Part shown: positions 51,736 through 64,000 of the stretch, in pieces
Layout of the letters: the number at the start of each line of letters is the position of its first letter
How positions within the stretch are numbered: the stretch's first letter is position 1
Source of the DNA: Solwaraspora sp. WMMD792
GTDB lineage: Bacteria > Actinomycetota > Actinomycetes > Mycobacteriales > Micromonosporaceae
NCBI RefSeq assembly: GCF_029626105.1
Contig: NZ_JARUBH010000009.1
Location: forward strand, 2,914,001-2,978,000
Length of the DNA: 64,000 nt
Reading direction: 5' to 3'
The notes under the pieces: generated by a model
What the model was told of the DNA's origin: nothing
The model's database searches: none
Seen by the model: only the letters and a program-made list of their open reading frames with translations
Made by a program: the position numbers and the translations under genes

Positions 51736-54129
51736 TCAGCCCTCGCCACTGCCGAGGTACGGCAGCCGTTGGTCGGGGTCGCGTACATGCGGCAACGCCC
51801 ATCCCTCGACGACTGCCTTCTTCTCCAGCCGTTCGTTCGCGACGAACCACTCGTAGCTTTCGGCCTGCGGCTGGCGGGTCATCCGGGGGTAGTGCACCTC
51901 CTCGGTGACGGGCTTGGCGGCGGCCAGGTACGATTCGGTGGCCTCGCGCAGCACCTCGTTGCCCTTGGCGGTGGCGGCGAAGCGGTCGGCGAGGGTGGTC
52001 AGCCGGTCCGGGTCGACCGGGGCGGGGCGGGTCAGCCGTGACCAGCCTGCCCGGACGCCAGCAGCGTCCCACAGCCGGGTCCGGTCCCGGTCGAGCTGGA
52101 CGGTCACGACGCCGAAGCCGTACGGCTTGCCGGCGCCAAGCCGCAAAGGCGTGTCGCCGCCACGGGTGACCAGCCACAGCAGGGCACCGAGTTCGACCTC
52201 CGGCACAGCGTCGAGGAACAGCTCGACCTGGAAGGTCGCACCGGGTCGCACCCAACCTCGGTGGCGGGCCAGCTGTGTGGCGTGGTCCGTGCGCTGCTTG
52301 GGCAGGGCCAGGTAGCCAGGGCCGGGAACGGTGCGGTCGCGGCCGGGCTCCCAGTGGTCCGGGGCTTCCGCCCGCCAGCGGTACATCTTGCGGCCGCGCA
52401 GCCCGCCGTCGGCGGCGTACCCGTCGGCTTTGCGCACCCCACGCCGCAGAGGTGTCCCGGCGTTGTCGGACGCGGCGTAGAAGCGGGACTGGGTGGGTTT
52501 GGGAGTGCTCAGCGGAGCGAGGACGACGCCGTCCGGGGGAAAATCCGTGGGTTTCCAGTCGGGGGTGACGCAGGTGACCGACCGTACCCGCAGCCGGCCA
52601 CGGTAGCCCGAGGCCCCGTCGTTGGCCTCGGAAACGTCGTCGCCGCCACCGGACGGCACCCACCCGAACAGCCGGTCCGCCGGGGAGAGCTGGTCGCGAT
52701 CCTGCGCGGGGCGAAGGCTGGGCGGCAGCAGATCGTCGGGCGCGGCGGCGAACGGCAGCCGGCCGACCATGACCGGGTGGACCTCGGTGATCTCGTCGCG
52801 GGACCTGTCGTACCTGAGGTAGACGAGGGTGCCCACCGGCAGTTCCCGCAACTCGCGGGTGCTGGGCACGTGTTTGGACCGGACGATTCCCTTGGCTGTC
52901 GCGGGATCCCGGCGGTAGGTGGCCTGGGGGTCGTTGTATCCGTGGGCTAGGTCGTAGGCCCGAAGCACCGACTGCCAGTAGCGTTTGTGGTCGTCGGTGA
53001 CCGGCACGTCCCGGCCGGCGGTCTCCACGAACAGCCGTTCGTAGCGCTTGGATTCGATGGTTTTCCCGCTCGCGGAGAGCCAGCCCCACACGATCCGGTG
53101 CCGCTCCTCGGTGGCACGATCCGACGTGAGGCCCTGCTCTGCCAGGCCCGCGTGCAGCTCCTTCTCGGTGCGGGCCAGGTGGGTGACCTGCCAGGCGCGG
53201 CCGCCGTCGCGCCGGAGGACGACCCGGGCATGGACCAGCGTGCCATGGTGGTCCGACAGCGGCGTCCCGTCGAGTTCGCCAAGGAGGCGTACGGCTGGCT
53301 CGGCTCCGTAGGCGGGCACCAAGGCGGCGTACTGGGTCTGGTTGCCGTTGGTCCGTGGCCAGCCGGCGTCTCCCTGGCACAGCCGGAAGGCGGTGCTGCC
53401 GTCGGCGAGCTGGTGGACCCGCGCCGGGATGAGATTCAACGCGGCGTCGGTGGTGGCCCGGTGGGCGAGCCGCTCGTGGTGGTCGAAGAAGACGCCGTAC
53501 CGGCTGGCGGTGATTGTCTCGTAGGCGCTGCGCAGGGCACCTTTGACGGAGGCGCCGTGCATCAGCGGCAGTCCGTTCGGGTCGACCCGGACATCGAACG
53601 TGCGGATGCCGTCGGCAGGCTGCGTCGCTGCGCGCACCGGCAGCAGCAGCGGGGAGACGGTCGTCAAGGTCAGGGCCAGGGTGCCGCTGAACTGTCCGCC
53701 CGTGTGAAAGGCGTGGCTGGTCGGCGCGGCGTCGTCGAGGCCGGTGTCGGCCAGGCGGGTGCCGTCCCGGTCCGTCCGGGGCAGGGTCGGCACGAACGTG
53801 TACGGGTTGACGAAGCCGCCTCCGGAGTCGAGCCGCTTTGTCCGGTCCGGGTCGGTGGTGACCTTCGCCAGCGGGGCGACACCGACAAGCTGGGCGGTCC
53901 GCTTCCCGTTGGCGGCCAGGTCGGTGACGACGGTGACGGTGACGGTGCCGCCCTCGGCCATGGTGTCGACGTGTTCGGTCAGGGCACTGTCCCACTCGGA
54001 CGGCTTAAGGGGTTTCAGCCTTGCCGCCTTGCCTCTGCCGCTGCCGTCGATCACCCCTTCGAGGTGGCCGTCCCGCTTGGTCAGCTCGGCCTGGACCCTG
54101 CGCTTCAGCTTGTCGTTCGACGTACTCAT
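51736..54129 (-). CDS. TIGR03986-type large Cas7 RAMP protein (Cas7-insertion-like)
   Basis: 797 residues. The family hallmark is FVNPYTFVPTLPR (about 106-118). A Cas7/RAMP domain follows with TFDVRVDPNGLPLMHGASVK (about 178-197), where Asp179 occupies the position of the target-RNA-cleaving Asp of Csm3 and GASVKGALRS is the conserved Gly/Arg loop. A glycine-rich loop GAGKPYGFGVVTV lies near residue 685. The long middle part (about 260-600) is an insertion relative to simple Cas7 proteins, as in the Cas7-insertion subunit of type III-Dv. It should form part of the crRNA-binding backbone. It is the last gene of the operon and overlaps csx19 by 4 bases (ATGA). Confidence 0.88.
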   Translation of the reverse strand: MSTSNDKLKRRVQAELTKRDGHLEGVIDGSGRGKAARLKPLKPSEWDSALTEHVDTMAEGGTVTVTVVTDLAANGKRTAQLVGVAPLAKVTTDPDRTKRLDSGGGFVNPYTFVPTLPRTDRDGTRLADTGLDDAAPTSHAFHTGGQFSGTLALTLTTVSPLLLPVRAATQPADGIRTFDVRVDPNGLPLMHGASVKGALRSAYETITASRYGVFFDHHERLAHRATTDAALNLIPARVHQLADGSTAFRLCQGDAGWPRTNGNQTQYAALVPAYGAEPAVRLLGELDGTPLSDHHGTLVHARVVLRRDGGRAWQVTHLARTEKELHAGLAEQGLTSDRATEERHRIVWGWLSASGKTIESKRYERLFVETAGRDVPVTDDHKRYWQSVLRAYDLAHGYNDPQATYRRDPATAKGIVRSKHVPSTRELRELPVGTLVYLRYDRSRDEITEVHPVMVGRLPFAAAPDDLLPPSLRPAQDRDQLSPADRLFGWVPSGGGDDVSEANDGASGYRGRLRVRSVTCVTPDWKPTDFPPDGVVLAPLSTPKPTQSRFYAASDNAGTPLRRGVRKADGYAADGGLRGRKMYRWRAEAPDHWEPGRDRTVPGPGYLALPKQRTDHATQLARHRGWVRPGATFQVELFLDAVPEVELGALLWLVTRGGDTPLRLGAGKPYGFGVVTVQLDRDRTRLWDAAGVRAGWSRLTRPAPVDPDRLTTLADRFAATAKGNEVLREATESYLAAAKPVTEEVHYPRMTRQPQAESYEWFVANERLEKKAVVEGWALPHVRDPDQRLPYLGSGEG

Positions 54130-54749
54130 GCCGTCGTCCTTTCCGGCTCACGCGCGGCCCCGGTGTCCGCGACCGTGGCCCGCAGCGCGACCGTACGGAC
54201 GTCGGCCACATCGAGGTTGCCGTGGATGTCCTCGACGAGGTACTCGACGGTCTCCACGGTGAGCGCCCTGGCACCGACCGCCGTCACCGGCAGGTGCGCG
54301 GCGGCGTACCGGTCGCTGGCCAGCGAGGTCCAGCCTGCTCTGGGATGCTGCTGCGGGGTTCCGGCCAGCAGCCGCCGGTGGGTGTCACCGCGTCGCGGTG
54401 CCGGCTCAGCGGTGACCGGCCGGCCGGGCGGCAGGTCGGCCGGGTCCTCGCCGAGGGCGACCGCAGTGCCGCGTCCGTCGGGTTCGCGCAGCCAGCGCAG
54501 TTCCCGTTCACCGTCGAACAGCAGCAGCTCGTACGCTTCGGCGAGGACGTTGTCGGCATCGCTGACATGCTCGACAGCACCGTCGGGGCCGATCGACAGC
54601 CAGGTGGCGGCACCAGCGGAGAAGGTATAGCCGAGGGTTTGGCCCGCCCCTGCCGGGCGGGCGGTGAACCAGCTGACCGCGTCGGCGGCGGTGAGCGGGG
54701 TGGCGGCACGAACGGCGTGCAAGGTCGCGCCGAGGGCGATTTCTCTCAC
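54126..54749 (-). CDS. csx19: Csx19 (TIGR03984 family)
   Basis: 207 residues from a GTG at 54749 with GGAG 8 bases upstream. It resembles TIGR03984 proteins, with the N-terminal LTAADAVSWFTARPAGAGQT, FSAGAATWLSI, and the central YELLLFDGERELRWLREPDG. Csx19 is found in type III-D systems and is a structural subunit of the III-Dv complex without catalytic function. The gene overlaps both neighbours by 4 bases (GTGA upstream, ATGA downstream), indicating tight co-translation. Confidence 0.85.
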   Translation of the reverse strand: MREIALGATLHAVRAATPLTAADAVSWFTARPAGAGQTLGYTFSAGAATWLSIGPDGAVEHVSDADNVLAEAYELLLFDGERELRWLREPDGRGTAVALGEDPADLPPGRPVTAEPAPRRGDTHRRLLAGTPQQHPRAGWTSLASDRYAAAHLPVTAVGARALTVETVEYLVEDIHGNLDVADVRTVALRATVADTGAAREPERTTA

Positions 54750-56488
54750 GCTGGATTCTCCTGGAACTGGTTCTCCCACCTGGCCATCGCGTCGACGATG
54801 TCCGTGGGTGAGTCGGCGAGGATGGTGTCGAGGGTGCGGCCGGCCAGCGACTGCCACGCACCGGCCAGACCGGCACCCTCGAAGGTCACATCGGTGACCT
54901 CGATCTGACCCCGGCCCCGGGTGCTGCCGTAGCCGAGGGTCAACCAGCCGTCCCGCAGGTCCCGCAGGACGAGCAGCAGCAACGGCAGCGCGGCCGTGGC
55001 CGACGCGTGCCGGGGGTCGGACCGGTCGGGCCCGGCGAAGCGAGCGAGCCGGGCGACGTCGATCTCGATGCGGATCGGCTCCCACCGGACGGTGGGGCTC
55101 GGCTCCAGGACGCTGAACAGTCGGTGGTCGCTGGCTCCTCCGGTCCACCGGTCGATGGCGACATGGTCACTGATCTGGAAGGGCAGCTCCGACGAGATGT
55201 CGTCGAGCTGGCCGTACAGCCGGGTGCGGGCCTGGTCGCGGTCGCTGTTGCGGTCCGCCCGTTCCTGGCGGGGCGCGGCGCCCGGGGTCGTCCGGGCGGT
55301 CGGTGTCGTCCGGGCGGTCGGTGTCGTCTGCGCGGTCGCGGCCCGCGCCTTCGGACTGACGGTGACCACGCTGTTCCAGCTCTGCGCGCTGAGCTGACCG
55401 AGGCTGTGGCAGTCGGCCACGCTCACCGCGCCCCGCCAGCCGGTGGTGTCCTGGCTGGCGGGGCGGCCCTGCCGGTGCCCGACCGGTGCCGCCCCGAACA
55501 GCACGTCGACGCCGACCGGTGGTCGGCGCAGATTTTCACCGAAGCCGTCGCCGTCAGCGTGGTCGGGGGCGTCCTGCCGCAGCAGGGTACGCACGATCCG
55601 TTCGGCGTGGGACCGCATGACACCGCGGATCGACGAGCCGGGCAGCAGTAGCCGCACGATACCGTCCACATCGGTCGCGGTCAGCGGCAGCGTGTCGACC
55701 ACCGTGCCGCTGAGTGAATCGCGTACCAGGACCGGGGTGATCGGCCGCCAGGAGACGGTGATCCGCAGCCGGCCGTCCTGCGGCGGCAGGTCCGCCACCG
55801 GTGGCCGGGTGGGTTCGGCGGTTCCGGTCAGCCAGGTGACCAGGCCGGCCGGTTCGGACAGGTCGGCGCGTCGGACGGTGACGTCGCGCAGCTGCACCCG
55901 CCCGTGGCCACGGCCCCGGCCGGCGCCGATCGGGACTCGGCCGTGGCACAGGCCGGCGATGATGGTCTCGACGGCGTCGTGGATCAGTGCCGGCCACCCG
56001 CCGGGGTACCTGGGTTCGGGCGCGGCGGTCGGGATGTCCGCGACCAGACGCAGCGCGAAGGCGGTGCCGGCCGGGAGCACTTCCCGTGTGTAGAGGTAGG
56101 CGGCTGCGGCACTTGCCGACCGGCGGTCGATACCCACACCGTCGCGGACCGCAGGGGCGACCGTTTCGCCGGTCAGCGGGGCGTCGTCGATCCGGATCCA
56201 GGACGGTGATCCACTGTGCGAGTACGGCGTGACGTGCCCGAAGAGCGCATCCAGCGGTGCGGTTGGTCCCTCGCCGAGCGTCCGGTCGCCGCCGAACCGG
56301 TCGGTGCTGGCGAGGTAGGCCCGGAGGGCTCCGGCGATGGAGGATCCGGGGAGGAAGGGCCGGTCGGTGCCGTCCCGGGCGACACTCAAATCCGCCAGGG
56401 CGGTGGTGTCCCAGCCGCCGACATGGACCGGGCCGAGGCAGGTCAGGGTCCCGCGCACCTCGATGCGGGTGCCGATCGACTGTCCCAT
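54746..56488 (-). CDS. double Cas7 RAMP protein (Cas7-2x)
   Basis: 580 residues with two Csm3-like domains in tandem. The first (about 8-215) has HVGGWDTTALADLSVARD with Asp33 at the Csm3 cleavage position, FLPGSSIAGALRAYL (45-59) and a Gly-rich GAGRGRGHGRVQL. The second (about 240-575) has VLVRDSLSGTVVDTLPL, LLPGSSIRGVMRSHAERI (281-298) and GYGSTRGRGQIEV. Between about residues 375 and 400 is a low-complexity linker of TTPTAR repeats encoded by near-identical 21-bp DNA units. Two RAMPs in one chain match the Cas7-2x subunit of type III-Dv. The start codon shares a base with the csx10 stop (TGATG). Confidence 0.9.
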   Translation of the reverse strand: MGQSIGTRIEVRGTLTCLGPVHVGGWDTTALADLSVARDGTDRPFLPGSSIAGALRAYLASTDRFGGDRTLGEGPTAPLDALFGHVTPYSHSGSPSWIRIDDAPLTGETVAPAVRDGVGIDRRSASAAAAYLYTREVLPAGTAFALRLVADIPTAAPEPRYPGGWPALIHDAVETIIAGLCHGRVPIGAGRGRGHGRVQLRDVTVRRADLSEPAGLVTWLTGTAEPTRPPVADLPPQDGRLRITVSWRPITPVLVRDSLSGTVVDTLPLTATDVDGIVRLLLPGSSIRGVMRSHAERIVRTLLRQDAPDHADGDGFGENLRRPPVGVDVLFGAAPVGHRQGRPASQDTTGWRGAVSVADCHSLGQLSAQSWNSVVTVSPKARAATAQTTPTARTTPTARTTPGAAPRQERADRNSDRDQARTRLYGQLDDISSELPFQISDHVAIDRWTGGASDHRLFSVLEPSPTVRWEPIRIEIDVARLARFAGPDRSDPRHASATAALPLLLLVLRDLRDGWLTLGYGSTRGRGQIEVTDVTFEGAGLAGAWQSLAGRTLDTILADSPTDIVDAMARWENQFQENPA

Positions 56489-58887
56489 CAGGAGGTCTCC
56501 TTCCCAGTGGTGGCGCGGGTGCCGGCGGCCGCTGTGGACGTGGTCCGACCGAGGGAACGCAGTGCGGCGGTGACCGCAGTCAGCAGCGCCTCGGTGTGCA
56601 ACTGTTCCCGCAGCGTGTCCTCCCGCCCGGGGGCGAGGACCAGGGTGGGTTGGGCACCGGCCAGCCCGAACCGCTCCCAGACGAGTCTCCGGTCGGTGAG
56701 CAGCAGCGCGGACAGGTCATCCAGGACGGGCTCGGTCCAGGTCTCCCGGCGGGCCCGGACCGCCCGGGTGCCCGCCAGCCAGTCGCGGACCATGTCCGCC
56801 CCGCCGGGCAGGGTCAGCCGCTCCAGTTGGGCGCGCAGCGACCCGAGCTGTGCCCGTTGGCCGGCCAGCCGGTCAATGCCCTTGATGACCTCTTCTGGCC
56901 GCAGCTCGGCGCTGGCCCGTCGGATCGCCCGCCGCCACGCCTGGAGTTCGATCGGGTGGACCGGCTCGGCCAACCCGGTCGGTCCGTCGGACCCGGTCGG
57001 CGCGGCCCGCGTGGTCGTGGCCCGCGTCGTCGACGGGGTGGAACAGGTTGTGAAGTCGAAGTCGGGTTCGGCGGTGGACAGCTCCGACGGGTTGAACCGG
57101 ATTCGGCCGTACCCCTCGACGGTGCGTTCGCCGATGCCGTCGCGTTCCAGCCGGCTGAGCACGGCCGGGTCCAGCTGGCCGGTCACGGTGAGGCGCACGA
57201 CGCTACCGGCCCGCAACGCCACCTGGCTGGACCGGGGCCGCCCCCAGGCGACGCCGAATCCTTCCCGCCGGACCGCGGCGGCGGTCAGCCGGCCGATCGC
57301 CTCGACCGACACCGGTGCCAATGCCGCAGACAACGCCCGGGCCAGCCCTTGTGGTGACGGATCGGGGGCCAGCCGTTCGTCGCGCAGCAGGACATCGGAG
57401 ACGCACCACACCAGCAGCTGCCCCTCGGTGAGGGTCGGCGGTGGTGGCGTCGGCAGCGGGTCGATCACCCGGACGACCTCGACCAGGCCGAAGTCGTCCT
57501 TACGGGAGCGGCCGAACCGCAACTGTTCTCCCGGGTCCAGCCGCAGCCGGGCCTGCTCCGGCAGCACGATGTCGCTGCAGAGCACGGTCCCGGCGGCGAT
57601 GCCGAGATTGGTGAACAGGCCACCGCTGGCGACAGTCGGGCGGCGCTGCACGTCGTCGACGACGGCGTGAGTGGACACCGTCTTCGCCGGGTCGGCCGGC
57701 CGCCATCCGGTCCCGTTGGGCACCACCCAGCCGGACATGGGTTTGGCCTGTTCCTCAGCTGGCGCGTCACCGCCGAGGATGTTGCGGACGGTGCCGCCCC
57801 GGCCTTTCCCGCTGCGGTGCCACACCATCGGCACCGGGCGGGCGGGGACCACCGAGGCAGGATCACGGGGGTCCTCGATCGCCGGTACCGCGTCGCCGAC
57901 CCGCACGTCGGCCAGGCCGATCCGGGCACGCCCACCACCGTCAGCCGATGGTCCGGGCTGCGTCCGGCGCAGGACAGTGCCGAGCAGCATCGTGCCGGGA
58001 ATGCTGTCATGGCCGCTGATGACGTTTCCCAGCACATCGGCGACGGCCACCACCGGGGTACGGACCCGCAGCACCACCCGCACGACACGGTGCCGGTCCG
58101 GGTGCAGCCGGTCGTACGGGTGCACCTCGACCCGCGGACCGGCCGGCGGTGGCGCTGGCGGGTCGGCGGGCACCCCGCCGGCCAGCAGCTCGACCAGCTG
58201 GCTGTCGGTCACCGTCGCGTGCGGACCGTCGCCGTCCACCTGGGCACCGGGCAGTAGGAAGGCCGCCCGCCCACCGCCACGGTTGCGTCTGCCGCCGACC
58301 GCCTCCACGAGCCGGGCGCCGGCGCGCAACAGCAGCTCCGCCGGTGCGGGAAGCCGGTCGGGATCACCTGGGATCGCGGCGGCGACGCTGACCCGGGCGT
58401 GTAGCAGCATGCCGCGCAGCGCCCGTTCCTCGACCCGGAGGAACCGGTCGGCGGCCGTACCGGTCTCGTCGTCGATCTTCACGCCGGGGCGGAGAACGAC
58501 AGCGGCCTGCGCCAGCGTCGGCTGCCCCCTGACCCCGTCGCGCAGCCAGGCCGGAGCCCGGGCGGGGGTGACCCGCAGGACCGCCGGCGTCGGTTCCTTC
58601 CCGGTACGGGCAGAGTCCCCTTCCTCGGCCGGTGGATGGGTACCGAACAGCCAGTCCACCCATGCCCGCCAGGCCGCCGGCCGGTCGCCGCCCCGGTCGA
58701 AGGTGTCCGCCGCCGTCTCGCAGGCGTCCCGCCAGATTCCGACGATGGTCTTGGCCGGCACGAACGGCAGGTGGTCGCTGTCGCGGCGGACCTCGGCGTC
58801 GACACTGCCCAACCGGCCCTGGCCGGTGCCGATGTGCCAGTCGCTGAGGAACTTCAGGGTGATCTCGAATGTCGTGGGCAGCGTCAT
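56488..58887 (-). CDS. csx10: Csx10-like fusion protein (Cas7-Cas5-Cas11 type)
   Basis: 799 residues from the ATG at 58887; the frame stays open further upstream but that part lies inside cas10. An N-terminal Cas7-like domain has LSDWHIGTGQGRLGSVDAEV with Asp30 at the Csm3-like cleavage position, FVPAKTIVGIWRDACE (42-57) and a Gly-rich GGRRNRGGGRAAFLL. A second RAMP part follows (about 255-630; VVRVVLRVRTPVVAVADV, SIPGTMLLGTVL), the Csx10/Cas5-like portion. The C-terminal ~150 residues are mostly helical (LRPEEVIKGIDRLAGQRAQL) and are the candidate Cas11-like small-subunit part. No separate small-subunit gene exists in the operon, which supports the fusion. It overlaps cas10 by 4 bases (ATGA). 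Confidence 0.87.
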   Translation of the reverse strand: MTLPTTFEITLKFLSDWHIGTGQGRLGSVDAEVRRDSDHLPFVPAKTIVGIWRDACETAADTFDRGGDRPAAWRAWVDWLFGTHPPAEEGDSARTGKEPTPAVLRVTPARAPAWLRDGVRGQPTLAQAAVVLRPGVKIDDETGTAADRFLRVEERALRGMLLHARVSVAAAIPGDPDRLPAPAELLLRAGARLVEAVGGRRNRGGGRAAFLLPGAQVDGDGPHATVTDSQLVELLAGGVPADPPAPPPAGPRVEVHPYDRLHPDRHRVVRVVLRVRTPVVAVADVLGNVISGHDSIPGTMLLGTVLRRTQPGPSADGGGRARIGLADVRVGDAVPAIEDPRDPASVVPARPVPMVWHRSGKGRGGTVRNILGGDAPAEEQAKPMSGWVVPNGTGWRPADPAKTVSTHAVVDDVQRRPTVASGGLFTNLGIAAGTVLCSDIVLPEQARLRLDPGEQLRFGRSRKDDFGLVEVVRVIDPLPTPPPPTLTEGQLLVWCVSDVLLRDERLAPDPSPQGLARALSAALAPVSVEAIGRLTAAAVRREGFGVAWGRPRSSQVALRAGSVVRLTVTGQLDPAVLSRLERDGIGERTVEGYGRIRFNPSELSTAEPDFDFTTCSTPSTTRATTTRAAPTGSDGPTGLAEPVHPIELQAWRRAIRRASAELRPEEVIKGIDRLAGQRAQLGSLRAQLERLTLPGGADMVRDWLAGTRAVRARRETWTEPVLDDLSALLLTDRRLVWERFGLAGAQPTLVLAPGREDTLREQLHTEALLTAVTAALRSLGRTTSTAAAGTRATTGKETS

Positions 58888-60536
58888 CGGATGTCCTTCT
58901 TGGATGCGGACCGGTCGGTCGACGGGGCCGGAGCGAAGGTGTCCAGGCGCAGGCCGTGCAAGTGCATCGCGTCGAACAGCCGCAGGAACGGCGCGTCGGT
59001 GCCGTCCGCCGGAGGCTGCCGCCCGCTGTCGGTGCCCGGGGTGGGCAGCTGGACGTCGAGAAGGGCGCGGGCCCGGTCCGGGTCGGGGGCGCGGGGCACC
59101 GTCAGGCGCAACTGGTGGCGGTATTCGGCAAAGCTGCGGTCTGCGGCCTCGCGGAGGGCGTGGGCCTGGGCGGCCGACAACCACCCCGTACGGTCGAGCC
59201 AGCTGGTGATCTCGTCGAGCAGTTCCACACTGCGGTGACGCAACTCGACGGGCAGGTCCTCGACGGCACCGAGCAGGTAGGGCCCGGCGTAGCGGGCCAC
59301 CCGTGGGCCGCACTTCGCGGCCGGTTCGGTGTGCTCCCGCAGCAGTGTCAGGTCCCGCAGCGTGGCGGCGTGCGCCACGTGCAGGTCGAACGCGGCCGCT
59401 GACCGGAACCGTTTGGCTGACACGGTGAGCGCCTCGGCCAGCTCGTACGCGGCCCCGAAGGGGTGATGGGGCTTGATCACCGCGATCCCGGCGGAGGCGG
59501 TGAGACTACCGCGACCGGTGGCCTTCCGGGCGATGGCCGACAGCCTCGGCTGGACGGCGGTATGCCGGGCGAACCCCTCGGCGAAGGCCCGCACGAACGG
59601 CACGGCGAGCGCCGCGTCGCAGATCAGTGTCACGTCGTCTCCGCCGACGACGATCGGCAGCAGCCGCCCGGTCAGTTCCTCCCCCGCCCGCTGGTCCCGC
59701 AGGGCGGCGATGGCATCCCGTACGGCGTCCCAGGTCGCCTTCTCCAGCTCCGCGGACACCAGCCGCTGGTAGCGCAGATGGGTGGCCAGGTCGACCGAGC
59801 TGGTGCCCTCGACCGCCATGACATGGTCGATGAAGCGACGGAACGGGCCACCGACGCCGTTGCCGTCGGCGTGCACGACCGCCGCCCACCCGCTCTGCCG
59901 CAGGACGTCGGTGTTGGCCGGTACGACATCACCGAGGTCGCCGGGCAGCTGCTCCAGTAGCCGCTGGCTGGCCCGATGTCTGGCATCGGATCGGGCCAGC
60001 ACTCCGGCCGAGGCTGCCACGAGTTCGTCCTCGCCGTACCGTTCCTCGTCGGCGGCCGGTTGGCCGCTGTCCCGGCAGAGTCGGTGCCAGGGGAACACCC
60101 GGTCGCGCAGCAGCGGATCCCGGCGGGCCGCCCGCACCTCGACGTGCAGCCTGTACGTCTTGTCTCGCGCCGGCTCGTGCGCGGCGGGGTCGGTTGCGTC
60201 GAACGGCGGGCCGACCACCCCGGTCACCTGTAGACCGGGAGCCTCCCGCAGCGCCCGGCCGCTGACCTCCCGGATGACGGCCCTGCCGGCCTCGACCGAA
60301 CCCACCAGCAGCAGGGCCTTGCCGGAGGCGGTCATCACCACGGTGGCGTCGGGATCGTCGAGTCGCCCGACCGCGGTCGGCACCCACTCGGTGCCGATCT
60401 CGTGGACGAGCTGCGACGCCCCGACGACGTGCCGCAGCCGGTTGCTGCCGAAGATGTACCGCTGGTTGCCGCCCGTCTCAATCAGCACCCAGTGCCTGCG
60501 CCCGATGTGCTCAGTCGGTGGTGGTACGCCATTCAT
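58884..60536 (-). CDS. cas10: Cas10 (HD-less, GGDD intact), type III-D
   Basis: 550 residues. The N-terminus starts directly with the first Palm region (HWVLIETGGNQRYIFGSNRL, about 15-34), so the HD nuclease domain of many Cas10 proteins is absent. DGNGVGG at 224-230 and the polymerase/cyclase motif VVGGDDVTLI (GGDD at 298-301) indicate an active second Palm that can make cyclic oligoadenylates from ATP. The C-terminal ~170 residues are a helical D4-like domain. No Cys4 zinc finger is obvious. The start at 60536 has only a weak SD and lies 50 bases after the unknown 724-aa gene. It should form the large subunit of the interference complex. Confidence 0.92.
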   Translation of the reverse strand: MNGVPPPTEHIGRRHWVLIETGGNQRYIFGSNRLRHVVGASQLVHEIGTEWVPTAVGRLDDPDATVVMTASGKALLLVGSVEAGRAVIREVSGRALREAPGLQVTGVVGPPFDATDPAAHEPARDKTYRLHVEVRAARRDPLLRDRVFPWHRLCRDSGQPAADEERYGEDELVAASAGVLARSDARHRASQRLLEQLPGDLGDVVPANTDVLRQSGWAAVVHADGNGVGGPFRRFIDHVMAVEGTSSVDLATHLRYQRLVSAELEKATWDAVRDAIAALRDQRAGEELTGRLLPIVVGGDDVTLICDAALAVPFVRAFAEGFARHTAVQPRLSAIARKATGRGSLTASAGIAVIKPHHPFGAAYELAEALTVSAKRFRSAAAFDLHVAHAATLRDLTLLREHTEPAAKCGPRVARYAGPYLLGAVEDLPVELRHRSVELLDEITSWLDRTGWLSAAQAHALREAADRSFAEYRHQLRLTVPRAPDPDRARALLDVQLPTPGTDSGRQPPADGTDAPFLRLFDAMHLHGLRLDTFAPAPSTDRSASKKDIR

Positions 60537-60586: not shown

Positions 60587-62761
60587 CTACCCGCCGATGG
60601 TGTGGTCGGCGACGGCCGAGAGTGTCGTGTGCCAGTCGTGCCACTGGGTGAGCGGCAACCCGCCCACCCACTGATTGCTCGGCGTCCGGTCCGCCGACGC
60701 CGTGGCGCTGGCGGTGACGCGGTCGAGCAGCGCCACCGCCGCAGCGGCGTCGCGGGGATCCACGGTGATGCCGTTGGCGGCGGCCACGCACAGCGCCCGC
60801 GCCACCACCTGCGCGGTCGAGGCGGACGCCTGCGGCGAGTCACGCCGCACCGTCAGGTCGGACAGCACCGTCCGGGCGTGCCGGACCGCCGTGGCGCAGG
60901 CCCGCGCCCGGGCGGCGTGTTCCCGGTCGGGCGTGGCCAGGGCGAGGTCGGTGGCGATCCGGGCCGCGAGCTGGTGGCTGGAGCGGGCGGCGACGGCCTT
61001 GGCGGCGTATCCGGCTGTTTCCCGGCGGACGACCTCCGTACGCACCGCCGCCACCCGTTCCTGCACCGCGAGGGCCTGACGAAGGTCGCCACGCCGGCCG
61101 GTGCGGGACCGCCAGTCGGCGTAGTGGTGCAGGTGGAACACCTGGGCGTCGCTGAGAGAGTCGATCACGGTTGCCAGATCGGTGTCAGGGTCGATTCCCC
61201 GTGCTGTCAGCGTGGCCGACCACCACGACTTCATCATCGACGCGGGGACCTGGGCTACGGACGCCTCGGTCGGGTCCACCGGGGAGTCCGGGTCGGGCAG
61301 CGCCGCAGGCAGGGAGGTAGCGTCGAGCAACGCGGTGATGCCGATCTCCAGCAGGTACGCCGCCGCGCCGGGGTCCATCCGACCGGACCGCCAGGACTCC
61401 ACGACGTGCTGCTGCGACGCGATCAGCCGCCGCACGGAGGACACCCGGTGGGGATCCGGGTCGGCGTCAGGGCCGGGCAGCTCGCGGGTCGAGTCCCACA
61501 CGTCGAGGTAGGCACCGTACGCGCGAAGCAGCAACGCCACCGGGTCCGTGGGATCGAGCACCTCGCCACTGCGCACGACGGCGAGGGCGACCAGCTCCCG
61601 GGTCTGGTGACGCAGGTCCGGCCGGGTCGTCAGGAGTTCGTCGCGGTAGCGGAGGTAGTTGGTGGCGACGTGGGCGACCAGCAGGTGGGCGCGGCGGTGC
61701 AACAGCGGAAGGCCTGCCAGTTCACCGGCGTCGGGCAACGTCGGCAGCGTCGGTGTCGGGGCGTGGCCGACGCGGGTCACACCGCCGAGGCTGGCTGCCA
61801 CGAACGGAGCCACGACGGCACCGACCCGCACCATGGCCTGGACGTGACGGGAGCCCCGGTCGTCCTCGGTCAGCCACACCACACCCCTGCCGGGACGCCC
61901 GACGTCAAGCAGCCGGTGACACCAGGCCGAGGCGATGTCGTCGAGCGCCTCCGGGGACACCACTCCAACGCCACCGGCCGGGTCGCCGGACTTGTCCACG
62001 GCGAGCCCGATCGCGGGAAGTGTCGCGTCGACCAGATCGAACGACGTCGGCCGCCAGCGGGCGTCGGCCCGCTCCGCGCCGGTGTCGTCGGGGGGCTGCG
62101 GTGCCCACGGACGGATCTCTGACGGGGCGTCGTCACCTGCGACCACCCGTGCCCGGTCGACCTGTCTGCCCCACCGGGCCGACAGCGACCGCTGCACCTG
62201 GCGGGCCTGAACGGCCGCGACGACCAGGGCCGGCTGTGCCCGGTAGACCTCAAGGACCAGCCCTGCCCACACCGCCAAGCGGATCTCGCGATCACAGTCG
62301 CCGGAGGCGAGCCACTGGGCGGCGGCAGCGACGGCGGCCGTCGCGTCACGCAGCAGCCGGTTGGCGGCGGCCAACACCGCTGCTGCCTTTGTGTCAGGGC
62401 CGTACCGGTTCAGCGTGGCGTTGCTCAAGCCGCCAGGCAGGGGTGCCTGCGGACCCGCCCAGACCGCGCGGCCCACCCACGACCAGTCCCGGTCGCCGTC
62501 GGTGGCCGGCACGGCGAACGTGGCGGCGTCCAGACCGGACCGTTGTGCCTTGTCCGGGGCAGGCGCCCCGCGCCCTATCTCGGCCAGCGACAGGGTGGTG
62601 TAGTCGCACACCCAGGACCGGTGGAACGGGGGGAGGTCGCCGTCCACCCCGAACAGCGAGGCGACCTTGCGGGCCACCCGCACCTCCACCACGTCGGCGC
62701 GGCGGGCCTCGGCTGCCGGGATCTCGGCGGGGAAGACGTGCACGGCCGACACCGTACACAC
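60587..62761 (-). CDS. large protein of unknown function at the head of the type III-D operon
   Basis: 724 residues from a GTG at 62761 with GGAG 5 bases upstream. No family is recognised. About the first 60 residues look globular (VFPAEIPAAEARRADVVEV). The rest is dominated by Ala/Arg/Leu-rich helices (YLRYRDELLTTRPDLRHQTR, HYADWRSRTGRRGDLRQALA), suggesting an all-helical or TPR-like repeat fold. There is no transmembrane segment, signal peptide, nuclease motif, P-loop, HEPN RxxxxH with flanking pattern, or CHAT-type His/Cys dyad that I can see. It is the first gene of the leftward operon, 50 bases before cas10, and divergent from the CARF-like gene, so a role in this CRISPR system (effector, inhibitor or scaffold) is inferred from context alone. 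Confidence 0.8.
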   Translation of the reverse strand: MCTVSAVHVFPAEIPAAEARRADVVEVRVARKVASLFGVDGDLPPFHRSWVCDYTTLSLAEIGRGAPAPDKAQRSGLDAATFAVPATDGDRDWSWVGRAVWAGPQAPLPGGLSNATLNRYGPDTKAAAVLAAANRLLRDATAAVAAAAQWLASGDCDREIRLAVWAGLVLEVYRAQPALVVAAVQARQVQRSLSARWGRQVDRARVVAGDDAPSEIRPWAPQPPDDTGAERADARWRPTSFDLVDATLPAIGLAVDKSGDPAGGVGVVSPEALDDIASAWCHRLLDVGRPGRGVVWLTEDDRGSRHVQAMVRVGAVVAPFVAASLGGVTRVGHAPTPTLPTLPDAGELAGLPLLHRRAHLLVAHVATNYLRYRDELLTTRPDLRHQTRELVALAVVRSGEVLDPTDPVALLLRAYGAYLDVWDSTRELPGPDADPDPHRVSSVRRLIASQQHVVESWRSGRMDPGAAAYLLEIGITALLDATSLPAALPDPDSPVDPTEASVAQVPASMMKSWWSATLTARGIDPDTDLATVIDSLSDAQVFHLHHYADWRSRTGRRGDLRQALAVQERVAAVRTEVVRRETAGYAAKAVAARSSHQLAARIATDLALATPDREHAARARACATAVRHARTVLSDLTVRRDSPQASASTAQVVARALCVAAANGITVDPRDAAAAVALLDRVTASATASADRTPSNQWVGGLPLTQWHDWHTTLSAVADHTIGG

Positions 62762-62785
62762 AACTACTCCGATCGATCAACTACT
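62761..62785. repeat. direct repeat in the divergent promoter region
   Basis: CAACTACT occurs at 62761-62768 and 62778-62785 with GATCGATC between. The repeats are in the only AT-rich part of the 128-base gap between the 724-aa gene and the CARF-like gene, at a spacing of 17 bases. A regulator binding site or part of the promoters is possible. Confidence 0.5.
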
Positions 62786-62889
62786 AAAGTTGCCGAAGAT
62801 TCGGTACGGATAGGCTGTTCGAGGCGGGGCCCGGACGGCATTCCGACACTCCGTGGCTACCCGACCCGTCGTCTTCCACAATGGCCCCC

Positions 62890-64000
62890 ATGCGCCTGCT
62901 GGTTCACATCACCGGGGAAGCGGATCTCCTGCTTCGCGCGGACGGCCCCACCCCCAAGACCGTCCGCGCCGACCGGGTCCAAGCCCGCTGCCGACAACTC
63001 GCCGCGACAGCCGCCGGCCCCGCCGGGTCGTCCGCAGCCCGGCGACTACTCATCGACGGCACCTGGGAGGACGACCACCCCCGTACTGCCGCACCCAGCC
63101 CGCTGCTCGGTGCCCTGACCAGACTCACCGAGACCTCGGACCTCGACGTACTGGTGATCGGCACCCGCCAGCAGCCACCCGATGACCTGGACACGGCGCC
63201 GATCGCCCAGACCCTCGCCGAGGCGCTGCGCACCGGGACCGGCGACGCGGCGACCATCCACACCATCGCGGCGGCGACGATCGAAGGTCTGGCGGAAGTG
63301 GACGTCATCCACGCCGTCGCCGCCCACCTCGACCGCTCCCCGCGCTACACCGAGGCGATGGTGACCTGGGGCTCCGGCTCCACCACCCTGGCCATGGGCG
63401 TGCTCACCGCGCTGTCTCAGGCGGGGCTCCCCTGGCGGCTGATCGTCACCAACGGCCGGACCGCGTACGAAATCGTCGACCCACAGGACAGACTCGACCG
63501 TGACCCGGTCGCCGGCGTCCTGGTCCGCTGGCGCATGTTCCAGGCCCTCGCCGACCTCGCCCTCACCGACCCGCCCATGGTCGGGCTCACCGACGACGGA
63601 CACGACCTCGTCCGCCGAGCCGCCGAGCGCCACGACCGAGGGTTCGCCGCGTACGACACCGCGTCGTTGCGCGCGGTACTCGCCGACGCCGTCGTCCGCC
63701 GCGACGGCACCGCCAGCCTCGCCGTCCGCCGCTATGTTGTCAGCCGCTACGAGGAACTGCTGGAACTCGACCAGATCGACCACCCGTGGGCCGAAGACCT
63801 CCTCCGCAGGTACGAGCAGCCCAGCGGCGGCCCGCCGCTCGGCGCGAAGCTTGGCATGATCGCGCACGACCGCCACGACGACCCGATGATCTGCGCCTCC
63901 GTCGACCTGCCGTCCTACCGATGGCTGTACGGATCCGAGGTCGCTTCACTGCAGAACATCGGAAAGGGCAGTCACAACCTCCGCCCGCCCACCGCCTGCG
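62890..64000 (+). CDS. CARF-like Rossmann-fold protein, candidate CRISPR effector (3' truncated)
   Basis: At least 370 residues; the frame stays open to the window edge, so the C-terminal part is missing. An in-frame ATG at 62881 is an alternative start. Residues ~70-175 have a CARF-like layout: a strand LDVLVIGTRQQP with DTAPIAQTLAEAL, then helical parts, then a strand followed by a ligand-loop-like VTWGSGSTTLAMGVLTALSQ (about 152-171) and the strand WRLIVT. CARF domains bind cyclic oligoadenylates made by Cas10. Residues ~190-340 are helical and charged, and a new domain may begin near ICASVDLPSYRWLYG. No effector nuclease motif is visible in the part present. Divergence from an operon with GGDD-type Cas10 supports the reading. 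Confidence 0.7.
   Translation, partial: MRLLVHITGEADLLLRADGPTPKTVRADRVQARCRQLAATAAGPAGSSAARRLLIDGTWEDDHPRTAAPSPLLGALTRLTETSDLDVLVIGTRQQPPDDLDTAPIAQTLAEALRTGTGDAATIHTIAAATIEGLAEVDVIHAVAAHLDRSPRYTEAMVTWGSGSTTLAMGVLTALSQAGLPWRLIVTNGRTAYEIVDPQDRLDRDPVAGVLVRWRMFQALADLALTDPPMVGLTDDGHDLVRRAAERHDRGFAAYDTASLRAVLADAVVRRDGTASLAVRRYVVSRYEELLELDQIDHPWAEDLLRRYEQPSGGPPLGAKLGMIAHDRHDDPMICASVDLPSYRWLYGSEVASLQNIGKGSHNLRPPTAC

What the first reader, a model, noticed from the sequence alone, without database searches (positions are those of the whole stretch)
60587..62761. Unrecognised ~724-aa protein leading the type III operon
The gene is first in the operon, 50 bases from cas10, larger than most accessory CRISPR proteins, and shows no known domain by eye. 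It is mainly helical. Its fixed position would make it a new component or regulator of this type III variant. It is the strongest candidate for an undescribed part of a known kind of system.
Basis: inference. Interest (0 to 1): 0.8.

Follow-up and report, generated by a model that had tools for sequence, protein, structure and literature searches.

The report
Unnamed helper gene of CRISPR III-D
The gene at the head of this bacterial RNA-targeting CRISPR operon is real and belongs to no named protein family; it looks like a helper protein shared with another set of bacterial genes built around a caspase-like protease, and its job is not yet known.

Summary
A 724-codon ORF lies on the minus strand 50 bases before cas10 of a type III-D operon (likely start GTG 62743, 718 aa). 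It matches no family in Pfam, NCBIfam, PADLOC or PDB sequences, and PHROGs only by chance-level hits.

Relatives from sampled genomes form two groups split by one branch (100/100). One group sits at type III-D loci in 10 of 10 genomes, nine Micromonosporaceae and one of another family. The other (8 genomes) lies away from this operon's cas genes, with a CHAT (caspase-like) protease gene nearby in 7. So it is a III-D accessory, probably recruited once, from a family that is not CRISPR-specific.

A second III-D lineage lacks it in 6 of 7 loci, one of them in the same genome, so it is no obligatory core subunit. It stays when the CARF effector differs: Csm6-2 here, a membrane CARF protein in G921. 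A promoter-like element precedes 9 of 10 Micromonosporaceae starts.

The C-terminal half models as a TPR-like superhelix; the most conserved N-terminal 240 residues could not be modelled. Best guess, inferred: an adaptor that docks on the Cas10 complex and relays or gates its activation.

The parts
60587..62743 (-). The unnamed gene (ORF runs to 62761; likely start GTG 62743, 718 aa): conserved N-terminal core about residues 1-240, TPR-like helical C-terminal half
62777..62791 (-). Promoter-like element (AACTTTAGTAGTTGA, 2 mismatches to the consensus TACTTTTGTAGTTGA), upstream of the gene
58884..60536 (-). cas10, GGDD present, no HD dipeptide in the 550-aa protein
56488..58887 (-). Cas7-Cas5 (Csx10-like) fusion; start by analogy with L020
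54746..56488 (-). Cas7 (Csx7-like) RAMP gene
54126..55148 (-). csx19 ORF; the true start probably lies much further in (family match begins at residue 187)
51736..54129 (-). Cas7-type RAMP of family TIGR03986
50514..51445 (.). CRISPR array, 13 repeat copies, about 36-nt repeat
62881..64000 (+). Csm6-2 homolog (CARF and HEPN), divergent; 815 aa, runs past the window end

Best explanation
It is an ancillary protein of one lineage of type III-D CRISPR, of a family shared with CHAT-protease-linked gene cassettes of actinomycetes and probably recruited from them once. SHOWN: position, conservation, purifying selection, one branch between the two contexts, persistence when the neighbouring CARF effector differs, absence from most loci of a second III-D lineage, a conserved promoter-like element. 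INFERRED: it acts as an adaptor. Its C-terminal TPR-like superhelix would dock on the Cas10 complex or on a partner; its conserved N-terminal core (invariant R58-G-A-P, T110-x-N-R-x-G-P-D-T, R168-x-Q-P in 17 members, numbered from GTG 62743) would bind a ligand or partner of the kind used in the CHAT cassettes, so that recognition of target RNA is relayed to, or held in check at, an output beside cyclic-oligoadenylate signalling. No step of this mechanism is shown.
For: 10 of 10 genomes of one clade have it at III-D loci; 8 of 8 lineage-A cas10 loci have it. 4-nt overlap with cas10 in G406 and with the next gene in G921. Kept with Csm6-2 in 8 of 9 Micromonosporaceae and with a membrane CARF protein in G921. 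TPR-type superhelices among the Foldseek neighbours of the modelled C-terminal half. 50 of 68 invariant positions in the first 240 residues. Sister group with a CHAT gene near 7 of 8; tree split 100/100, also without the long branch.
Against: No Foldseek match at E 0.001, and helical repeats match many things. The N-terminal half was not modelled. Lineage B does without it. No dedicated CHAT protease goes with it in Micromonosporaceae: the carrier G329 has no match to the cassette CHAT profile and carriers G406, G558, G473 and G296 only weak ones, while non-carriers G398, G372, G095 and G310 have strong ones. The direction of recruitment rests on a midpoint root.
Confidence: 0.45

Rival explanations
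1. It is a transcriptional regulator of its own operon and of the divergent Csm6-2 gene, binding the conserved upstream element.
For: First gene of the operon beside a divergent promoter region; element at up to 2 mismatches upstream of 9 of 10 Micromonosporaceae starts and nowhere else in the fetched DNA at up to 3; 8 of 12 sites with 0-1 mismatch in 13 genomes are at this gene. In 6 of 8 CHAT cassettes too it is divergent from a neighbour.
Against: No DNA-binding family hit; over 700 aa with a helical-repeat half; no such element found in G921 or in the CHAT-cassette loci scanned. At up to 2 mismatches the genome-wide numbers do not exceed the reversed-pattern control (39 against 54). The element may simply be a strong promoter.
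Confidence: 0.2
2. It is an effector with an enzymatic N-terminal domain (for instance a nuclease or hydrolase) that makes up for the missing HD domain of Cas10.
For: Cluster of invariant polar residues in the N-terminal core in both clades; Cas10 lacks an HD.
Against: No enzyme family recognised; lineage B works with the same kind of Cas10 without it; III-D rarely has HD anyway (3%; PMC11229360, passage read).
Confidence: 0.13
3. It is a structural subunit of this lineage's crRNA complex.
For: First gene of the operon, next to or overlapping cas10 in several loci, and conserved as strongly as the core genes.
Against: Lineage B has the same core genes without it (csx19 not matched in L065). 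Relatives exist without this operon's cas genes.
Confidence: 0.1
4. It is a protease substrate, like Csx30 in type III-E, cut by a CHAT protease acting in trans.
For: The sister clade lies with CHAT proteases.
Against: CHAT genes do not follow the gene in Micromonosporaceae; the carrier G329 has no match to the cassette CHAT profile. The N-terminal core is too conserved for a mere substrate (inference).
Confidence: 0.07
5. It is a passenger gene without a role in CRISPR immunity.
For: Absent from most lineage-B loci; relatives elsewhere.
Against: 10 of 10 genomes of the clade, across two families, keep it at III-D; dN/dS 0.31; 4-nt overlaps.
Confidence: 0.05

Closest known systems
Csm6-2-associated type III-D systems (PMC11229360; PMC13187428)
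   Same: III-D operon with a Csm6-2 homolog beside it: the family profile matches three PDB chains named Csm6, 797 aa; that these are the published Actinomyces procaprae Csm6-2 is inferred from the length.
   Different: The papers' passages that I read describe Csm6-2 and CorA as partners in Actinomyces; none mentions a gene like this one.
TPR-CHAT (Csx29) and Csx30 of type III-E, Craspase (PMC10028731, PMC9729208; listing and start of abstract only)
   Same: Works like, at most: a TPR-type protein attached to a III-D-derived system, and a family link to CHAT proteases.
   Different: No CHAT domain in this protein, no CHAT gene beside this operon in the stretches read, multi-subunit complex with Cas10 here.
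CHAT-protease cassettes of actinomycetes found here (G088, G198, G233, G959, G1065, G1120, G1171); compare the caspase-dependent CATRA conflict systems named in PMC8195603 (one passage read)
   Same: The sister clade of the protein lies in them; multi-gene cassettes with a CHAT gene, in G1171 also tubulin-like and vWA genes.
   Different: The 360-, 330- and 600-aa companions reach no Pfam cut-off, so no tie to CATRA is shown. That Pfam holds CATRA models is recalled.
Cam1-type membrane CARF effectors (PMC11229360, passage read)
   Same: In G921 a 261-aa membrane CARF protein stands between this gene and cas10.
   Different: That is the neighbour, not this protein.

Membership tests
Type III-D accessory (cas-linked) gene | Recurrent place at III-D loci in unrelated genomes | tested here: met
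   10 of 10 genomes of the III-D clade, two families; 8 of 8 lineage-A cas10 loci, 1 of 7 lineage-B loci
Type III-D accessory (cas-linked) gene | Needed for, or modifies, immunity | not testable with these tools
   no experiment
CRISPR-specific protein family | Homologs only at CRISPR loci | tested here: not met
   eight homologs without matches to this operon's cas proteins in the stretches read; two of these contigs are under 10 kb
Type III core subunit (Cas10, Cas7, Cas5, Cas11) | Sequence match to a core family | tested here: not met
   no match in Pfam, NCBIfam or PADLOC
Type III core subunit (Cas10, Cas7, Cas5, Cas11) | Present in every complete operon of the subtype | tested here: not met
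   absent from 6 of 7 lineage-B loci
CARF or SAVED effector | CARF or SAVED domain | tested here: not met
   no match; the fold of the N-terminal half is unknown
TPR-CHAT (Csx29) | CHAT protease domain | tested here: not met
   no CHAT match in 12 members (Pfam: for 6 of them; PADLOC and NCBIfam: for all 12)
TPR-CHAT (Csx29) | TPR-like helical repeats | tested here: inconclusive
   C-terminal helices model well in 20 of 34 ten-residue blocks; Foldseek neighbours TPR-type, none at E 0.001; one Pfam TPR_4 match below cut-off in L030
Csx30 | Cleavage by a CHAT protease of the system | not testable with these tools
   no CHAT protease tied to it in Micromonosporaceae
Transcription regulator | Binds the upstream element | not testable with these tools
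   only conservation of the element was tested
Csm6-2 (the divergent neighbour) | CARF-HEPN-CARF-HEPN protein of about 795 aa with R-x4-6-H in the second HEPN | tested here: met
   815 aa; profile match to Csm6 chains of 797 aa, E 3.9e-24; RAPITH or RLTITH in 6 of the 7 rows that reach that far, L026 has the R two residues earlier. The second HEPN pair was not tested.

The most novel reading that the evidence does not exclude
A previously undescribed two-part adaptor family links two immune systems: in CHAT-protease cassettes it controls a bacterial caspase-like protease, and in type III-D CRISPR the same N-terminal switch is triggered by the Cas10 complex, giving these CRISPR systems a second, non-nucleotide output beside cyclic-oligoadenylate signalling.
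Probability: 0.2. Interest if true: 0.85.

Novelty: new variant of a known kind. Interest (0 to 1): 0.57.

Why it matters
Type III accessory genes have repeatedly turned out to be new immune effectors or protease-signalling parts. This one is conserved, tied to one III-D lineage, kept when the CARF effector differs, and has a sister clade in cassettes with caspase-like proteases. That gives a concrete, testable link between CRISPR and those cassettes and points to a family that the searched libraries do not name.

Tried and rejected
No named family: Pfam for the window protein and five relatives, NCBIfam and PADLOC for 12 members, PDB sequences by profile. PHROGs gave only matches at E 0.029-0.045 to families of unknown function, taken as chance. 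No relatives in plasmids, phages or viral contigs (one scan each). Overlapping plus-strand ORFs were set aside because conservation is in the minus-strand frame. That ordinary CHAT loci of Micromonosporaceae hide a distant relative was tested by profile on 8 stretches from seven genomes: best E 0.63 (its output was cut, but the part for this profile was shown). The weak G525 hit (57 aa, E 5e-4, one stop) has no match to this operon's proteins near it and was dropped from the counts. The 50-aa fragment in M. antibiotica (L023) was not counted as a carrier but was counted as a start in the promoter-element tally. G329 was left out of the tree because its gene is broken. Shah 2019 (PMC6546367) is not held, and supplementary files were not open to me, so the family may sit unnamed in such lists. 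Text searches that found no paper with all terms: Micromonospora + CRISPR + type III-D; CRISPR + Micromonosporaceae + Cas10.

Full report
THE GENE. The ORF lies on the minus strand at 60587-62761 (724 aa). Relatives start at MHVFPA, three of them with ATG, so GTG 62743 is the likely start. My early alignments (A1, A2) began one codon too far upstream, at 62746, which adds one residue. The stop is 50 bases before ATG 60536 of cas10 (sequence). Against G407 (94% identical) dN/dS is 0.31; the six other genes compared give 0.29-0.44. It is a coding gene under the same kind of constraint as its neighbours.

THE LOCUS. Downstream on the same strand lie cas10 with GGDD and no HD dipeptide, a Cas7-Cas5 fusion, a Cas7, csx19 and a TIGR03986 RAMP, then a CRISPR array of 13 repeat copies. 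Divergent from the gene is an 815-aa CARF protein that runs off the window. A single-sequence PDB search finds no Csm6, but the profile of 8 homologs matches chains 9w3u, 9w3w and 9w3v, named Csm6, 797 aa, at E 3.9e-24 to 9.9e-23. Near its C-terminus, 6 of the 7 rows that reach that far hold R-x4-H (RAPITH or RLTITH); L026 keeps only the R two residues earlier, and L025 is cut short. I take it for a homolog of Csm6-2, a CARF-HEPN-CARF-HEPN protein seen in 16 III-D loci (PMC11229360, section 22 read; reported there as cA6-activated) and later reported as preferring cA5 (PMC13187428, three passages read).

RELATIVES AT CRISPR LOCI. A search of 300 genomes of the family found matches in 9. One, G525, is a 57-aa weak hit without matches to this operon's proteins in the 14 kb fetched, and was dropped. 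With M. rosaria, nine Micromonosporaceae genomes carry the gene: G000, G407, G406, G473, G296, G357, G329, G558 (whose contig has the length and place of M. antibiotica's L002) and M. rosaria. In all nine it stands at a III-D cas10 or its remnant. G357 keeps only scraps of cas10, G329 has several broken genes, and in M. antibiotica a cas6 gene separates it from a lineage-B cas10. Csm6-2, whole or broken, is divergent beside it in 8 of 9; M. antibiotica has no match. An order-wide profile search (368 genomes, 7 with matches, 5 of them new) added G921, of another family: its locus runs CRISPR repeats, the gene (49% identical), a 261-aa membrane CARF protein, cas10 and the rest. No Csm6-2 match was seen on that 12-kb stretch, which ends just beyond the repeats. 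The gene overlaps the next one by 4 nt in G921 and overlaps cas10 by 4 nt in G406.

TWO III-D LINEAGES. A cas10 search of the same family (300 genomes, 12 with matches) separates lineage A (mostly 57% or more identity, or a remnant) from lineage B (33-43% over). With M. rosaria there are 8 lineage-A loci, and all 8 have the gene. Of 7 lineage-B loci only M. antibiotica's has it; the six others were read over 11-19 kb without a match. Two weaker cas10-like hits (G384 and a third place in G000) belong to other type III loci and were not counted. G000, G407 and G329 carry both lineages. The six lineage-B loci match this operon's core proteins (csx19 not matched in L065), and 5 of 6 match the CARF protein, two of them only weakly at the stretch's end. 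The gene is an accessory of lineage A, not an obligatory core subunit of III-D.

RELATIVES OUTSIDE CRISPR. A class search (296 genomes, 5 with matches, one the window itself) and the order search found eight relatives without matches to this operon's cas proteins in the stretches read: G088, G198, G233 and G152 (family f19; from genome sizes and genera I take it for Frankiaceae, a guess), and G959, G1171, G1065 and G1120. The G152 and G959 contigs are under 10 kb. A profile search of all 35 held f19 genomes gave the same four. A phylum sample of 346 gave only the window. A CHAT gene lies in the stretches fetched in 7 of 8, up to about 13 kb away (in G959 in pieces of different frames; in G1065 by 47% identity to G1171's). 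The eighth is G152, a 6,976-base contig. Three further proteins recur: one of about 360 aa, divergent from the gene, in 6 of 8; and ones of about 330 and 600 aa in 5 of 8 each. The 600-aa family was found in 3 of 292 class genomes, all three carriers. G1171 also has tubulin-like and vWA genes, and G1065 has ORFs in the corresponding order. These are conserved cassettes; that they are conflict systems is inferred from their content.

ONE SPLIT. A tree of 17 members puts the 9 III-D members and the 8 others on the two sides of one branch, support 100/100, in 100% of 200 bootstrap trees. The tool flagged G1120 as a long branch; without it the split stands, again 100/100 and 100%. One recruitment is therefore not ruled out and is the simplest reading. 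The root is a midpoint, so the direction (CHAT cassette to CRISPR) is inferred.

ANATOMY. In A1 the identity between the two groups is 38-47% over residues 1-200 and 17-32% after, by 40-residue blocks. Of 68 positions invariant in all 17 members, 50 lie in the first 240 residues. No transmembrane stretch stands out (highest 19-residue mean hydropathy 1.73). AlphaFold2 with three sequences gives helices from about residue 350 on; 20 of the 34 ten-residue blocks from residue 381 have pLDDT 70 or more. Foldseek neighbours are mostly TPR-type superhelices and designed helical repeats, none at E 0.001. The N-terminal half was not modelled, in the whole protein or alone.

PROMOTER-LIKE ELEMENT. TACTTTTGTAGTTGA at up to 2 mismatches lies upstream of 9 of 10 Micromonosporaceae starts (the M. 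antibiotica fragment counted as one) and at up to 3 mismatches nowhere else in 775,431 bases of fetched sequence, in which some loci overlap; ten first-order random sequences of 64 kb gave none. G473 has a 4-mismatch version at the same place; G921 has none at 4. In 13 whole genomes the 14-base core at 0-1 mismatch occurs 12 times, 8 of them at this gene; the other four are one variant in genus g1. At up to 2 mismatches the totals do not exceed the reversed-pattern control (39 against 54), so only the close matches mean anything. It overlaps a possible -35 box (my reading). It may be a strong promoter or a regulator's site.

WHAT IT LIKELY DOES. Three facts constrain the role. It stays with lineage-A cas10 while the CARF effector differs. 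A related III-D lineage mostly does without it. Its relatives live near CHAT proteases. A TPR-type adaptor that docks on the Cas10 complex and relays or gates activation fits these best, but no step of that mechanism is shown. A self-regulating transcription factor, an enzyme effector, a subunit, a protease substrate and a passenger remain, in that order. Against a protease partner in this family: CHAT genes matching the cassette profile do not follow the gene in 16 genomes compared, and the carrier G329 has no match.

NOVELTY. None of the four family libraries names the family. The type III effector survey (PMC11229360), the 2025 classification (PMC12669027) and the deep-clustering paper (PMC10910872), of which I read passages found by keyword, do not mention it in the places read. 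Supplementary lists were not open to me and Shah 2019 is not held, so an unnamed entry there is possible.

Noticed in passing
L003:3022-3378, L021:11704-12069, L025:6556-6927, L026:11429-11779, L027:11156-11518, L023:9224-9565: A second unnamed gene of about 120 aa (NLTPHVV... start) lies between Csm6-2 and this gene in five III-D loci and beside the M. antibiotica fragment, with a remnant at L022; it is missing in the whole genomes G000, G407 and G473. No Pfam match.
   Followed up: partly
window:62777-62791: Locus-specific promoter-like element with inverted-repeat character, conserved between genera upstream of this gene.
   Followed up: partly
G000:C9:3459511-3460974 (L066) and G000:C9:1748418-1748852 (L071): The window's genome carries a second III-D locus (lineage B) with a Csm6-2-like match, and a further type III locus.
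   Followed up: partly
L131:1-16740, L133:1-16531: Cassettes holding tubulin-like and vWA genes (Pfam hits in L131), a CHAT gene, a relative of this gene and three unnamed companions.
   Followed up: partly
L026:7931-14032: G357 keeps an intact copy of this gene and most of Csm6-2, while cas10 is reduced to scraps; the ORFs further downstream look like a type I cas operon by eye.
   Followed up: no
L129:8626-9411: A 261-aa membrane CARF protein (PADLOC 'CARF, 2 TMs', E 2.1e-10) sits between the gene and cas10 in G921, where no Csm6-2 match was seen.
   Followed up: partly
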